Assembly: GCF_026672425.1 (NCBI RefSeq)
Contig: NZ_JAPPRC010000006.1
Coordinates: 1,116,001 to 1,180,000, forward strand
Length of the DNA: 64,000 bases
Direction: 5' to 3'
Source: Pannonibacter sp. SL95
GTDB taxonomy: Bacteria; Pseudomonadota; Alphaproteobacteria; Rhizobiales; Stappiaceae
The position numbers were made by a program, and so were the translations under genes. The notes below the pieces were generated by a model, which was given only the letters and a program-made list of their open reading frames with translations, was not told the origin of the DNA and made no database searches. Shown in pieces: positions 14,972-24,542 of this stretch; the stretch's first letter is position 1, and each line of letters begins with the position of its first letter.

Positions 14972-15352
14972 TGAAAGTGCTCCCCACACACAGCGCCACC
15001 CCGGCGCCTGTCTCCAAATCCCGCCGCAGACTAGAGCATGCGTCTTTCTACCAACTTAACGCAAGGGGATTGGGTTTTACGTCGGGTTTGACCGGCCTTG
15101 CTCGTGCTCAGAACTTTTTGCGTGTCAGCCGGTCGGGCGGAGCCGGAGCGTCGCCGAAGGATCTGCAAAACGACGCAGGGCCCCGGCGGGGCCCTTGATG
15201 TTGGTCATCAACCTCGGCGTCACCGGCGTCATCCCGGCCAAGCGAAGCGCCGAGCCGGGACCGGAGAGCAGAGGTGTCGATCGTACAATGAACAGGGAGC
15301 CGATAAGCTCAGGCTCTCCGGTCCCGGGTCTCCGCTGTGCTCTCGCCCGGGG
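14972..15352. repeat. Gene-free stretch with an orphan hairpin and REP-like palindromes
   Basis: No convincing gene is present. An 8-bp-stem hairpin (AGGGCCCC, 15177-15195) looks like a terminator although no gene ends nearby. A REP-like pair follows: a perfect 15-bp inverted repeat, 15255-15269 against 15313-15327 (CCGGGACCGGAGAGC). A further palindrome CCCGGG...CCCGGG (15323-15351) is the site where the IS110 element entered. Confidence 0.65.
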
Positions 15353-16520
15353 TTGTTTGTTGTCCGAGGTGCTAGGGTAAAGGGGAAGCTGCGACCCTTA
15401 ACCCGCAGCTTCAGCGTCAGGCGACCGTCCCGGGGTCGGGTTTTCACCCGCTGTCATCATGGCTCCCTGACGCTTCCCTTTTCCCGCTTGGAGAGTTGAT
15501 TGGGCCTCTGGCTGACACCCACGCCCGCAAACAATCCGAAGCACGTCAAGGATAGCACGGCCATGCCCGCCCTGCAGCAGCCTCCCGCCCATGTCTGCGG
15601 CTTCGATGTCGCCAAGGACAGCATCACCGCCTTCGACACCGCCACCGGCCGTGTCACGACCTTCCCCAACCGCTCCGCCAGCATCCGCAAGGCGCTGACA
15701 GGCCTGTCGGCCGACTGCCTGTGCGTGTTGGAGCCGACCGGCGGCCACGAGCGCCTGCTGGTGGGCGAACTGACGGCAGCAGGCCTTGCCTGCCACCGGG
15801 CCGATACCGTTAAGGTCAAGGCATTCAGCCGGTCCTTCGGCCGTCTTGCCAAGACAGACGCCATCGATGCCCAGGCTCTGGCCCGCTATGGCGAGGAGCG
15901 CTGGAAGACACTCGCCCTGGTCACGCCGGCCGATGAGACCCAGAGCACACTCGCCAGCCTCAATGCCCGCCGTCAGGAGCTTCTCGCCCTCAAGGTGGCC
16001 GAGCAGAACCGCTCAAAGATCCCCGGAGAGGGACCTGGCATCGCGATCATCCGCCGCTCCTGCCAGGTCATCCTGCGGGCGATCCTGCACGAGATCGAGG
16101 CCATCGACGCCGCCATCGAGGCGCTCGTCGACGCCTCGCCGCAGCTCGCCCGCCGGATCGAGGTCTGCTGCTCCCTGCCGGGCGTGGGCAAGCGCACCGC
16201 CATCACCCTCGCCGCAACCATGCCGGAACTGGGAACGATGGACCGGCGCCAGGCCGCAAGCCTCGCCGGGGTCGCCCCTCATCCCAAGGACAGCGGAACC
16301 CTCAAGGGATATCGCCGGATGCATGGCGGACGCTCCACCGTCAAGCCGGCCCTCTTCATGGCCGCCTTGTCCGCAAGCCGCGCAAACGGGCCATTAAAAG
16401 AGGTCTATCAAAGGCTTATCAACAACGGGAAGAAGCCAATCCTCGCAATCTCCGCCCTCATGCGAAAGATCATCGTCATCCTGAACGTAAGGATCAGGCA
16501 AAACGCACAACAACAGAGTT
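15353..16520 (+). mobile_element. IS110-family insertion sequence, copy A (complete)
   Basis: About 1,168 bp with no terminal inverted repeats, as expected for IS110. The limits come from comparison with copy C: sequence is shared from the GTTG at 15352-15355 to the GTTG at 16518-16521, and the flanks differ outside CCCGGGG on the left and ATGAC on the right. It consists of a leader of about 210 bases, which folds as a bridge RNA, and one transposase gene ending inside the right end. It sits in a REP-like palindrome, downstream of the fumarase fragment. Confidence 0.88.
15385..15545 (+). ncRNA. Putative IS110 bridge RNA, copy A
   Basis: The leader folds as three units in the order known for IS110 bridge RNAs. 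First, a 9-bp hairpin (15385-15412). Second, a target-binding loop: outer stem 15413-15421/15466-15474 (AGCGTCAGG/CCTGACGCT), cap hairpin 15437-15450, left guide CCCGGGGT (15429-15436) equal to the sequence left of the element, and right guide GTCATCA (15453-15459) complementary to TGATGAC on its right. Third, a donor-binding loop: stem 15486-15491/15536-15542 with one bulge, left guide AGAGTTG (15492-15498) equal to the element's right end, and right guide CAAACAA (15528-15534) complementary to its left end TTGTTTG. The RNA's true ends are not known. Confidence 0.75.
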
Positions 16521-16522
16521 GA
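15563..16522 (+). CDS. IS110-family transposase (RNA-guided recombinase), copy A
   Basis: A 319-residue DEDD/serine recombinase of IS110. The N-terminal RuvC-like domain shows HVCGFDVAKDS (first Asp), VLEPTGGHE (Glu) and KTDAIDAQALARY (Asp pair). The C-terminal Transposase_20 domain contains LPGVGKRTA, AASLAGVAPHPKDSG and MHGGRSTVKPALFMAAL with its catalytic Ser region. I placed the start at ATG 15563, with AAGGA 10 bases upstream. A TTG at 15500 with GGAGAG before it would extend the protein by 21 residues, but it lies inside the donor loop of the bridge RNA. The stop codon overlaps the right end of the element. Confidence 0.9.
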   Translation: MPALQQPPAHVCGFDVAKDSITAFDTATGRVTTFPNRSASIRKALTGLSADCLCVLEPTGGHERLLVGELTAAGLACHRADTVKVKAFSRSFGRLAKTDAIDAQALARYGEERWKTLALVTPADETQSTLASLNARRQELLALKVAEQNRSKIPGEGPGIAIIRRSCQVILRAILHEIEAIDAAIEALVDASPQLARRIEVCCSLPGVGKRTAITLAATMPELGTMDRRQAASLAGVAPHPKDSGTLKGYRRMHGGRSTVKPALFMAALSASRANGPLKEVYQRLINNGKKPILAISALMRKIIVILNVRIRQNAQQQS

Positions 16523-16550
16523 TGACGGATGGTGAGGTCGTTGGAAGTGG

Positions 16551-16575
16551 CGAAGGGCCCCGGCGGGGCCCTTCG
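16551..16575 (-). terminator. Fumarase terminator, left repeat copy
   Basis: Perfect 11-bp stem CGAAGGGCCCC with a 3-base loop, 30 bases past the stop codon of the fumarase fragment on the minus strand. It lacks a clear T-tract. An identical hairpin ends the intact fumarase gene at 21108-21132. Confidence 0.7.
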
Positions 16576-16604
16576 AAATCAGCTGATCAGTTCAGGACTA
16601 CACC

Positions 16605-17453
<849 letters not shown>

Positions 17454-20657: not shown

Positions 20658-21083
20658 CCATCGACGCCGCCATCGAGGCGCTCGTCGACGCCTCGCCGCA
20701 GCCCGCCCGCCGGATCGAGGTCTGCTGCTCCCTGCCGGGCGTGGGCAAGCGCACCGCCATCACCCTCGCCGCAACCATGCCGGAACTGGGAACGATGGAC
20801 CGGCGCCAGGCCGCAAGCCTCGCCGGGGTCGCCCCTCATCCCAAGGACAGCGGAACCCTCAAGGGATATCGCCGGATGCATGGCGGACGCCCCACCGTCA
20901 AGCCGGCCCTCTTCATGGCCGCCTTGTCCGCAAGCCGCGCAAACGGGCCATTAAAAGAGGTCTATCAAAGGCTTATCAACAACGGGAAGAAGCCAATCCT
21001 CGCAATCTCCGCCCTCATGCGAAAGATCATCGTCATCCTGAACGTAAGGATCAGGCAAAACGCACAACAACAGAGTTGATGAC
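20658..21083 (+). mobile_element. IS110-family insertion sequence, copy B (3' fragment)
   Basis: Only the last 140 codons of the transposase (C-terminal Transposase_20 domain, from AAIEALVDASPQPARR) and the right end with its TGATGAC flank remain. The leader with the bridge RNA and the RuvC-like domain are absent, so this copy cannot move by itself. Two residues differ from copy A (QPAR for QLAR, GGRP for GGRS). Confidence 0.9.
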
Positions 21084-21107
21084 GGATGGTGAGGTCGTTG
21101 GAAGTGG

Positions 21108-21132
21108 CGAAGGGCCCCGGCGGGGCCCTTCG
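21108..21132 (-). terminator. Fumarase terminator
   Basis: Perfect 11-bp stem CGAAGGGCCCC with a 3-base loop, 29 bases after the stop of the intact fumarase gene on the minus strand. Confidence 0.75.
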
Positions 21133-21161
21133 AAATCAGCTGATCAGTTCAGGACTACACC

Positions 21162-22799
<1,638 letters not shown>

Positions 22800-23249
22800 C
22801 GGGGTCTCTTTCCTGGCGGCCGTGCTTCGTGATTGGAACGGCTCAAAACGGGATGGCCTTCTTTACGGCAAAATGGCCGGTCCCGCCAAGCGGGTCCGGC
22901 CTCGGGTCGCTAACAAACCTTTTCCCTGTCATCCCGGCCCAGCTGAGCGTCAGCGAAGCGCCGAGCCGAGGTGACATCTCGGCCGGGGGCATTCACCATG
23001 CAATGGCACGCATTTCCTGGAAGCGGGCCCTCCCTCCGTGCGCGCCCGGCCCGAGCAACATCCTCTCCGTGTCACCCCGGCCGAGCATCGCGAGAGCCGG
23101 GGCCAACTCGCTTCCAGAGCGATGCGGTAATTGCAGCAGCGTTGCGGCAGGCATCGCGCGCCATCTCCGCAGCCTGTGGTGCGACCCTGCCAGTCTCTGC
23201 TGCTCTGCGAACGAGTAGGCCCCGGGTCTCCGCTGCGCTCCGCCCGGGG
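22800..23249. repeat. Fumarase upstream region with REP-like palindromes
   Basis: About 450 bases without a gene. It holds a near-perfect stem-loop at 22875-22901 (GGCCGGTCCCGC arm, one mismatch) and scattered REP-like pieces such as GTCATCCCGGCC near 22929 and GCCGAGCCGAGGTGACAT. A 20-base motif at 22989-23008 recurs with one mismatch at 24436-24455, on the other side of IS copy C. The palindrome CCCGGG...CCCGGGG (23221-23249) is the insertion site of copy C. The fumarase promoter must lie in the first part. Confidence 0.6.
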
Positions 23250-24417
23250 TTGTTTGTTGTCCGTGGTGCTAGGGTAAAGGGGAAGCTGCGACCCTTAACC
23301 CGCAGCTTCAGCGTCAGGCGACCGTCCCGGGGTCGGGTTTTCACCCGCTGTCATCATGGCTCCCTGACGCTTCCCTTTTCCCGCTTGGAGAGTTGATTGG
23401 GCCTCTGGCTGACACCCACGCCCGCAAACAATCCGAAGCACGTCAAGGATAGCACGGCCATGCCCGCCCTGCAGCAGCCTCCCGCCCATGTCTGCGGCTT
23501 CGATGTCGCCAAGGACAGCATCACCGCCTTCGACACCGCCACCGGCCGTGTCACGACCTTCCCCAACCGCTCCGCCAGCATCCGCAAGGCGCTGACAGGC
23601 CTGTCGGCCGACTGCCTGTGCGTGTTGGAGCCGACCGGCGGCCACGAGCGCCTGCTGGTGGGCGAACTGACGGCAGCAGGCCTTGCCTGCCACCGGGCCG
23701 ATACCGTTAAGGTCAAGGCATTCAGCCGGTCCTTCGGCCGTCTTGCCAAGACAGACGCCATCGATGCCCAGGCTCTGGCCCGCTATGGCGAGGAGCGCTG
23801 GAAGACACTCGCCCTGTTCACGCCGGCCGATGAGACCCAGAGCACACTCGCCAGCCTCAATGCCCGCCGTCAGGAGCTTCTCGCCCTCAAGGTGGCCGAG
23901 CAGAACCGCTCAAAGATCCCCGGAGAGGGACCTGGCATCGCGATCATCCGCCGCTCCTGCCAGGTCATCCTGCGGGCGATCCTGCACGAGATCGAGGCCA
24001 TCGACGCCGCCATCGAGGCGCTCGTCGACGCCTCGCCGCAGCTCGCCCGCCGGATCGAGGTCTGCTGCTCCCTGCCGGGCGTGGGCAAGCGCACCGCCAT
24101 CACCCTCGCCGCAACCATGCCGGAACTGGGAACGATGGACCGGCGCCAGGCCGCAAGCCTCGCCGGGGTCGCCCCTCATCCCAAGGACAGCGGAACCCTC
24201 AAGGGATATCGCCGGATGCACGGCGGACGCTCCACCGTCAAGCCGGCCCTCTTCATGGCCGCCTTGTCCGCAAGCCGCGCAAACGGGCCATTAAAGGAGG
24301 TCTATCAAAGGCTTATCAACAACGGGAAGAAGCCAATCCTCGCAATCGCCGCCCTCATGCGAAAGATCATCGTCATCCTGAACGCAAGGATCAGGCACAA
24401 CGCACAACAACAGAGTT
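23250..24417 (+). mobile_element. IS110-family insertion sequence, copy C (complete)
   Basis: Same length (1,168 bp) and orientation as copy A at an offset of 7,897, with a handful of substitutions and no indels inside the element. It too lies between CCCGGGG(T) on the left and (T)GATGAC on the right, although the DNA beyond these bases is different from that around copy A. That common flank defines the target motif. Confidence 0.88.
23282..23442 (+). ncRNA. Putative IS110 bridge RNA, copy C
   Basis: Identical to the copy A leader through all guide and stem segments: 5' hairpin 23282-23309, left target guide 23326-23333, right target guide 23350-23356, left donor guide 23389-23395, right donor guide 23425-23431. 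Conservation of a non-coding leader in both copies agrees with function, though the copies are too similar for this to be a strong test. Confidence 0.72.
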
Positions 24418-24419
24418 GA
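23460..24419 (+). CDS. IS110-family transposase (RNA-guided recombinase), copy C
   Basis: 319 residues, nearly identical to copy A; differences seen are Phe for Val in TLALFTPADE, Ala for Ser in ILAIAALMRK, and NARIRHN for NVRIRQN at the C-terminus. The RuvC-like DEDD residues and the C-terminal Transposase_20 domain are intact, so it should be active. The start is ATG 23460 for the same reason as in copy A: the upstream TTG at 23397 lies in the bridge RNA donor loop. Confidence 0.9.
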   Translation: MPALQQPPAHVCGFDVAKDSITAFDTATGRVTTFPNRSASIRKALTGLSADCLCVLEPTGGHERLLVGELTAAGLACHRADTVKVKAFSRSFGRLAKTDAIDAQALARYGEERWKTLALFTPADETQSTLASLNARRQELLALKVAEQNRSKIPGEGPGIAIIRRSCQVILRAILHEIEAIDAAIEALVDASPQLARRIEVCCSLPGVGKRTAITLAATMPELGTMDRRQAASLAGVAPHPKDSGTLKGYRRMHGGRSTVKPALFMAALSASRANGPLKEVYQRLINNGKKPILAIAALMRKIIVILNARIRHNAQQQS

Positions 24420-24542
24420 TGACTCGGAGCAAGGTGCATTCACCACGCAATGGCATATGCCGCATATGAGCAACACCTCTCCGTTTCACCCTGGGCTCGC
24501 GCGACGCTTGGCCGGGGTGACATCGGCGGGGGCAAAAACGAA

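What the first reader, a model, noticed from the sequence alone, without database searches (positions are those of the whole stretch)
15353..15562. Bridge RNA of an IS110-family element can be read directly: all four guide segments match target and donor
The leader of this IS folds into a 5' hairpin and two internal loops. Loop 1 (outer stem 15413-15421/15466-15474, cap 15437-15450) carries CCCGGGGT, identical to the DNA left of the element, and GTCATCA, complementary to TGATGAC on its right. Loop 2 (stem 15486-15491/15536-15542) carries AGAGTTG, identical to the element's right end, and CAAACAA, complementary to its left end TTGTTTG. This is the layout of the bridge RNAs described for IS110 elements (IS621), where a recombinase uses one RNA to pair with target and donor. 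Both full copies share GTTG at each end; the guides meet at TT, so the crossover core is probably TT within GTTG (inference). This would be an additional, REP-targeting, bridge-RNA system.
Basis: partly seen in the sequence, partly recalled or inferred. Interest (0 to 1): 0.88.

Follow-up and report, generated by a model that had tools for sequence, protein, structure and literature searches.

The report
RNA-guided jumping element targeting repeats
A mobile DNA element in a Pannonibacter-like bacterium appears to carry a small RNA whose two loops spell out both the repeat it inserts into and its own ends: a clean new example of the recently described bridge-RNA systems, not a new kind of system.

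Summary
This is an IS110-type element (19 full copies in the genome) whose leader folds into a 5' hairpin, a target loop and a donor loop. In 18 element types (57 insertions) the left target guide matches the target at 102 of 108 positions (mean 68 after re-pairing; 0 of 100,000 permutations as high). The other three guides covary more weakly but above permutation. A relative 97-98% identical in protein differs at two of eight left-guide letters, and its target differs at the same two. An orthologous empty site and 23 of 25 free repeats read show a single AT or GT, not TTG. So the core is AT (GT at some targets), not TT. All four guides then contain the core, as in IS621, and GTCATCA is right target guide, core and 'handshake' bases, complementary to the recombined right junction. 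Targets are one end of REP-like repeats; 17 of 43 strict ones are occupied. Bridge RNAs and REP targeting of IS110 elements are published: new member of a known kind. Less expected: 18 of 57 insertions join a GT target core to an AT donor core.

The parts
15323..15351 (+). REP-like repeat core on the left flank (target side), ending CCCGGG
   Evidence: strict repeat pattern, 43 in the genome, this one at C6:1131323-1131351
15352..15353 (+). Left core dinucleotide GT (target copy)
   Evidence: free repeats and orthologous empty site hold one AT/GT here
15354..16521 (+). IS110-type element, copy 1, TGTTTG...GAGTTG between the two cores
   Evidence: 19 full copies compared
15373..15378 (+). Weak -10-like TAGGGT of a putative promoter whose -35-like TTGATT exists only at the circle junction
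   Evidence: 18 joined ends, 67 of 108 matches, shuffled mean 43, 0 of 5000; inference
15385..15412 (+). 5' hairpin, stem 15385-15393/15404-15412
   Evidence: 9 pairs, 7 with changes on both sides, 100% of cells paired
15413..15474 (+). Target-binding loop: outer stem 15413-15426/15461-15474, cap stem 15437-15441/15446-15450
15428..15436 (+). Left target guide TCCCGGG-GU (last two = core)
   Evidence: covaries with target, 102 of 108 over 18 types
15453..15459 (+). Right target guide GUC, core AU, handshake CA
15486..15542 (+). Donor-binding loop, stem 15486-15492/15535-15542
   Evidence: pairs here mostly invariant
15491..15500 (+). Left donor guide (G)AGAGUUG-AU
15528..15537 (+). Right donor guide CAAACA, core AU, handshake CC
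15563..16522 (+). Recombinase gene (319 aa from the likely ATG start; start codon inferred)
   Evidence: PF01548 and PF02371 (on the longer TTG frame); IS621 and ISCro4 structures
16522..16523 (+). Right core dinucleotide AT (donor copy), followed by target GAC
   Evidence: AT in 57 of 57 insertions
23251..24418 (+). Copy 2 of the element (cores 23249-23250 GT and 24419-24420 AT), same guides
20658..21078 (+). 3' fragment of the element without leader

Best explanation
The leader encodes the bridge RNA of an IS110-type element. Model: the element leaves as a circle whose joined ends read GAGTTG-AT-TGTTTG and assemble a promoter for RNA and recombinase (inferred). Loop 1 pairs with one end of a REP-like repeat (CCCGGG-GU on the left, GUC-AU on the right). 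Loop 2 pairs with the circle junction (AGAGUUG-AU and CAAACA-AU). The recombinase joins the two at the core: donor AT, target AT or GT. After exchange, GUCAU-CA and CAAACAAU-CC are complementary to the two new junctions, as IS621's handshake bases are. Shown here: boundaries, core, target, conserved RNA fold, guide covariation. Inferred from IS621: transcription, RNA binding, circle, cleavage and strand exchange.
For: Guide-target and guide-donor covariation over 18 types; P. carbonis element with matching guide and target changes; empty site 978 of 1033 identical, no gap at the junction; 23 of 25 free repeats read are CCCGGG-RT-GAC; structure covariation; recombinase domains and relation to IS621; handshake bases pair in most types (18 of 18 and 15 of 18 Watson-Crick with the donor, 17 of 18 and 15 of 18 with the target); junction promoter-like motif.
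Against: No transcript, circle or activity was tested. Permutations ignore relatedness of the elements. Right target and left donor guides vary little, so their signal is modest (66 of 72 against 59.7; 148 of 162 against 142.2). G074a targets do not follow its guide after GAC (5 of 5 differ) and two of its five copies have a changed left guide. Handshake bases fail for L192 (both) and partly for L189, L191, L195. The P. carbonis row shows one TAG in the translated match, so that copy may be inactive.
Confidence: 0.95

Rival explanations
1. One reading: core TT within GTTG, right target TGATGAC.
For: GTTG is at both ends of both full window copies; guides read as CCCGGGGT and TGATGAC meet at TT.
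Against: No unoccupied CCCGGGRTTGATGAC in the genome list: best sites have one mismatch. Free repeats read CCCGGG-RT-GAC. The orthologous empty site has one AT. Left G is A in 6 of 19 copies.
Confidence: 0.01
2. The RNA guides only target choice (seekRNA model); the donor ends are recognised by protein and the donor-loop matches are incidental.
For: Left donor guide and right end vary little. The seekRNA paper describes target matches on both strands (PMC11187229, passages).
Against: Right donor guide covaries with the left end (99 of 108 against 85.5, 0 of 100,000), and L196 shares GACTTGA in guide and right end where the others have GAGTTGA.
Confidence: 0.04
3. Copies spread by homologous recombination between repeats; the guides are fortuitous.
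For: Copy 2 and C3:1034396-1035819 share 1.4 kb including flanks; one copy pair shares near flanks.
Against: Only that 1 of 171 copy pairs passed the flank test; a clean empty site exists; relatives sit at other sequences that follow their guides.
Confidence: 0.02

Closest known systems
IS621 bridge-RNA system (PMC11208160 and PMC11208158; passages seen)
   Same: Recombinase family and aligned D-E-D-D and S positions, 5' hairpin plus target and donor loops, core in all four guides, handshake bases, promoter-like joined ends, REP targeting.
   Different: Core AT (GT at some targets) instead of CT; alphaproteobacterial repeats ending CCCGGG-RT-GAC; distant protein (phmmer E 8e-19). Activity unproven.
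seekRNA of IS110/IS1111 elements (PMC11187229; passages seen)
   Same: Upstream non-coding region with matches to both target strands; natural guide change between relatives (ISEc11/ISXne4).
   Different: Here a donor loop is also supported by covariation.
REP-targeting IS elements of Tobes and Pareja 2006, e.g. ISRm19, ISRm22, ISPpu9, ISPpu10, ISPa11 (PMC1525189; abstract and Results read)
   Same: Every copy at one position of a REP.
   Different: Other hosts and repeats; their sequences were not compared with this one.

Membership tests
IS110 family | DEDD/RuvC-like domain and Transposase_20 domain | tested here: met
   PF01548 58.8 bits (cut-off 29), PF02371 56.2 bits (cut-off 21.3)
IS110 family | Catalytic D, E, D, D and S of IS621 | tested here: met
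   Alignment to 8wt6 pairs giD/gfD, iEa/lEp, kTDtvDa/kTDaiDa, eSG/dSG; D15, E57, D99, D102, S244 invariant in 10 relatives; residue list of IS621
IS110 group (not IS1111) | Long non-coding region upstream of the gene, short right end | tested here: met
   About 210 bp upstream of the likely ATG; the stop codon lies in the last bases of the element
IS110 group (not IS1111) | No 11-13 bp subterminal inverted repeats | not tested
   -
Bridge-RNA system | RNA with 5' stem-loop and two internal loops | tested here: met
   Covarying consensus fold of 9 leaders
Bridge-RNA system | Target guides covary with target sites | tested here: met
   Left 102 of 108 (mean 68.4, 0 of 100,000), right 66 of 72 (59.7, 143 of 100,000)
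Bridge-RNA system | Donor guides covary with element ends | tested here: met
   Right guide 99 of 108 (85.5, 0 of 100,000); left guide 148 of 162 (142.2, 520 of 100,000)
Bridge-RNA system | Core dinucleotide in all four guides | tested here: met
   GU, AU, AU, AU in this element; some relatives depart in the left donor guide, e.g. G007, G062, L191, L192, L195, L196
Bridge-RNA system | RNA transcribed and bound by the recombinase; circular intermediate; RNA-dependent recombination | not testable with these tools
   Promoter-like joined ends only

The most novel reading that the evidence does not exclude
This lineage naturally recombines unlike cores: donor AT with target AT or GT. The RNA of this element carries one form in each target guide (GU on the left, AU on the right), each able to wobble to the other. 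In 18 of 57 insertions the left junction is GT and the right AT, and never the reverse, so natural junctions record that the exchange lies 3' of the first core base and that this base need not match between donor and target: a relaxed core rule for bridge recombinases.
Probability: 0.6. Interest if true: 0.5.

Novelty: new member of a known kind. Interest (0 to 1): 0.42.

Why it matters
It is an independent check, starting from raw sequence, that bridge-RNA guides can be read off a genome, with natural retargeting between near-identical elements and targets ranging from CCCGGG to CTCGCA. The AT/GT junctions make a testable statement about which core base must match. It also adds a case of IS110 elements using REP-like repeats as landing sites.

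Tried and rejected
Rejected: core TT (see rivals). Rfam gave no match up to E = 1 in 15200-16700. The leader had no match in 72,556 plasmid records at E 1e-5; the best listed plasmid relative of the protein is 39.4% identical. A 17-leader alignment misaligned the 5' hairpins of L189, L192 and L195 and gave only 24 pairs, 7 with changes on both sides; the 9-leader alignment was used for pair counts. Guide-extraction scripts were incomplete (missing fields). The -10-like motif is weak in this element (3 of 6) and best in L191 (6 of 6); promoter consensus is recalled.

Left out of the covariation test. Of (24 of 87 genomes with a match) I used the own genome plus G007, G014, G021, G062, G070, G074 and G082, elements of 57% identity or more with both ends. 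Those cut at contig ends (G040, G060, G079, G084), a two-piece G074 copy and the elements at about 28-39% identity were not tested. Of the 80 loci I used 9; L184 and L187 are the same as G007 and G021; L190, L193, L194 and L206 are cut; 65 were not examined. Guides were located by fixed RNA context, not by fit to target, but the context required a purine-pyrimidine core guide, and the right end was located by a pattern that contains TTGATGA (no insertion of the 57 failed it).

Literature: the listings showed no title or abstract on this element. Only open-licence PMC texts are held and ISfinder was not on hand, so it may already have a name.

Full report
What is there. The window lies in a 5,035,802-base genome. 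The leader occurs 19 times, each before a full recombinase frame, plus one 3' fragment. The 19 elements are each 1168 bp from first T to the T of GAGTT, in 15 versions, lowest pairwise identity 98.8%. The protein has both IS110 domains and matches IS621 (8wt6) and ISCro4 (9t56) among solved structures.

Insertion sites. All 19 copies have a REP-like repeat end on the left and GATGAC on the right (16, 3). The genome has 43 strict repeats; 17 are followed by the IS. Of the other 26, 25 were read: 16 continue ATGAC, 7 GTGAC, 2 GCGAC. The unoccupied site is thus CCCGGG-RT-GAC, not CCCGGGGTTGATGAC. The repeat unit is longer, about 125 bp, with many matches in the genus. For copy L024 the orthologous locus in P. 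carbonis is empty: left and right flanks meet there sharing two bases, and the joined flanks with one AT kept align at 978 of 1033 positions, with two one-base gaps that lie left of the junction and none at it; that site reads CCCGGAATGAC. At the locus syntenic with window copy 2, P. carbonis has CCCGGG-GT-GAC without the element.

Core. With core AT the donor junction is GAGTTG-AT-TGTTTG and the guides of this element read CCCGGG-GU, GUC-AU, AGAGUUG-AU and CAAACA-AU. Each includes the core, as described for IS621 (PMC11208160, passages). The bases after the two 3' guides, CA and CC, can pair with TG of the donor and GG of the target, as IS621's handshake guides do after strand exchange (PMC11208158, passages). 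Over 18 types the first and second of these bases pair Watson-Crick with the donor in 18 and 15 (2 more wobble), and with the target in 17 and 15.

Covariation. For 18 types (57 insertions) modal left target guide and modal target agree at 102 of 108 non-core positions (mean 68.4 on permutation, 0 of 100,000 as high); a reduced set of 9 types gives 53 of 54 (31.6; 1 of 100,000). Right target guide 66 of 72 (59.7; 143 of 100,000), left donor guide 148 of 162 (142.2; 520), right donor guide 99 of 108 (85.5; 0). Permutation ignores relatedness. Targets include GCGTAGG-AT (soil MAG), CTCAGG-AT (Asaia MAG), CACGGG-AT (Robiginitomaculum MAG), CTCGCA-AT (Novosphingobium MAG) and, in Mesorhizobium camelthorni, a right target ATGAGG with guide CCTCAT where the others have ATGAC and GTCAT. 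Deviations: six types miss one left-target position each. In the base after GAC, guide and target are identical in 30 of 57, wobble-compatible in 18 more, unlike in 9, including 5 of 5 in G074a. Two G074a copies have a changed left guide. The P. carbonis element (97-98% protein identity) has TCCGGG-AU against CCCGGG-GU here, and its target is TCCGGG-AT; one of the 19 targets here is also TCCGGG-AT.

Core mismatch. The left core is GT in 18 and AT in 39 of 57 insertions; the right core is AT in 57 of 57. This element (left guide GU) has GT on the left in 13 of 19 copies; the others (left guide AU, one AC) in 5 of 38 (Fisher p = 5e-5). Within this genome occupied strict repeats are GT:AT 12:5 and free ones 7:16 (p = 0.024, two GC sites left out). 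This fits a guide preference but also depends on which repeats each genome has. IS621 cuts the top strand 3' of the core, which predicts target core left and donor core right, as seen. The absence of the reverse class suggests that top-strand letters are kept, by cleavage position or repair (inference).

RNA. Nine leaders give 55 pairs, 97.6% of cells paired and 13 pairs with changes on both sides (shuffled mean 5.2; slid versions 1-2). Nearly all of this comes from the 5' hairpin and target loop; the donor-loop stems hardly vary. Joined ends of all 18 types contain a -35-like TTGATT with a -10-like hexamer 15-18 bases on (67 of 108 matches, shuffled mean 43, 0 of 5000), consistent with the circle-junction promoter in PMC11208160 (passages). 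Transcription was not tested.

Placement. Bridge RNAs of IS110 elements and REP targeting by IS621 (PMC11208160, passages), REP targeting by other IS elements (PMC1525189, abstract and Results) and natural guide change (PMC11187229, passages) are in print. This is a new member. The AT/GT pairing is its one less expected trait; the passages I saw change both cores together, and I did not see whether unlike cores were tested for IS621.

Noticed in passing
16101-17453 and 20658-22010: A 1.35-kb direct duplication (98.8% identical) holds the IS 3' end and the 3' part of a fumarate-hydratase-like gene (name recalled); the longer frame is 21162-22799(-), the shorter 16605-17417(-).
   Followed up: partly
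23099-24522: Copy 2 together with about 150 bp left and 100 bp right flank is 98% identical to C3:1034396-1035819, so it or the other moved by recombination or conversion rather than by an independent insertion.
   Followed up: partly
L091-L095: A different IS110 (about 35% aa identity) in genome G002 has CCGGGTCT-type repeat sequence on its right flank, i.e. it seems to insert at the other end of similar repeats.
   Followed up: no
L193, L194: Woodsholea maritima has fragments 90-91% identical to the C-terminal 125-129 residues of this recombinase at two contig starts, much closer than other genera.
   Followed up: no
L196, 1195-1500: The leader of the Phenylobacterium element carries a tandem duplication of its 5' hairpin region.
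   Followed up: no
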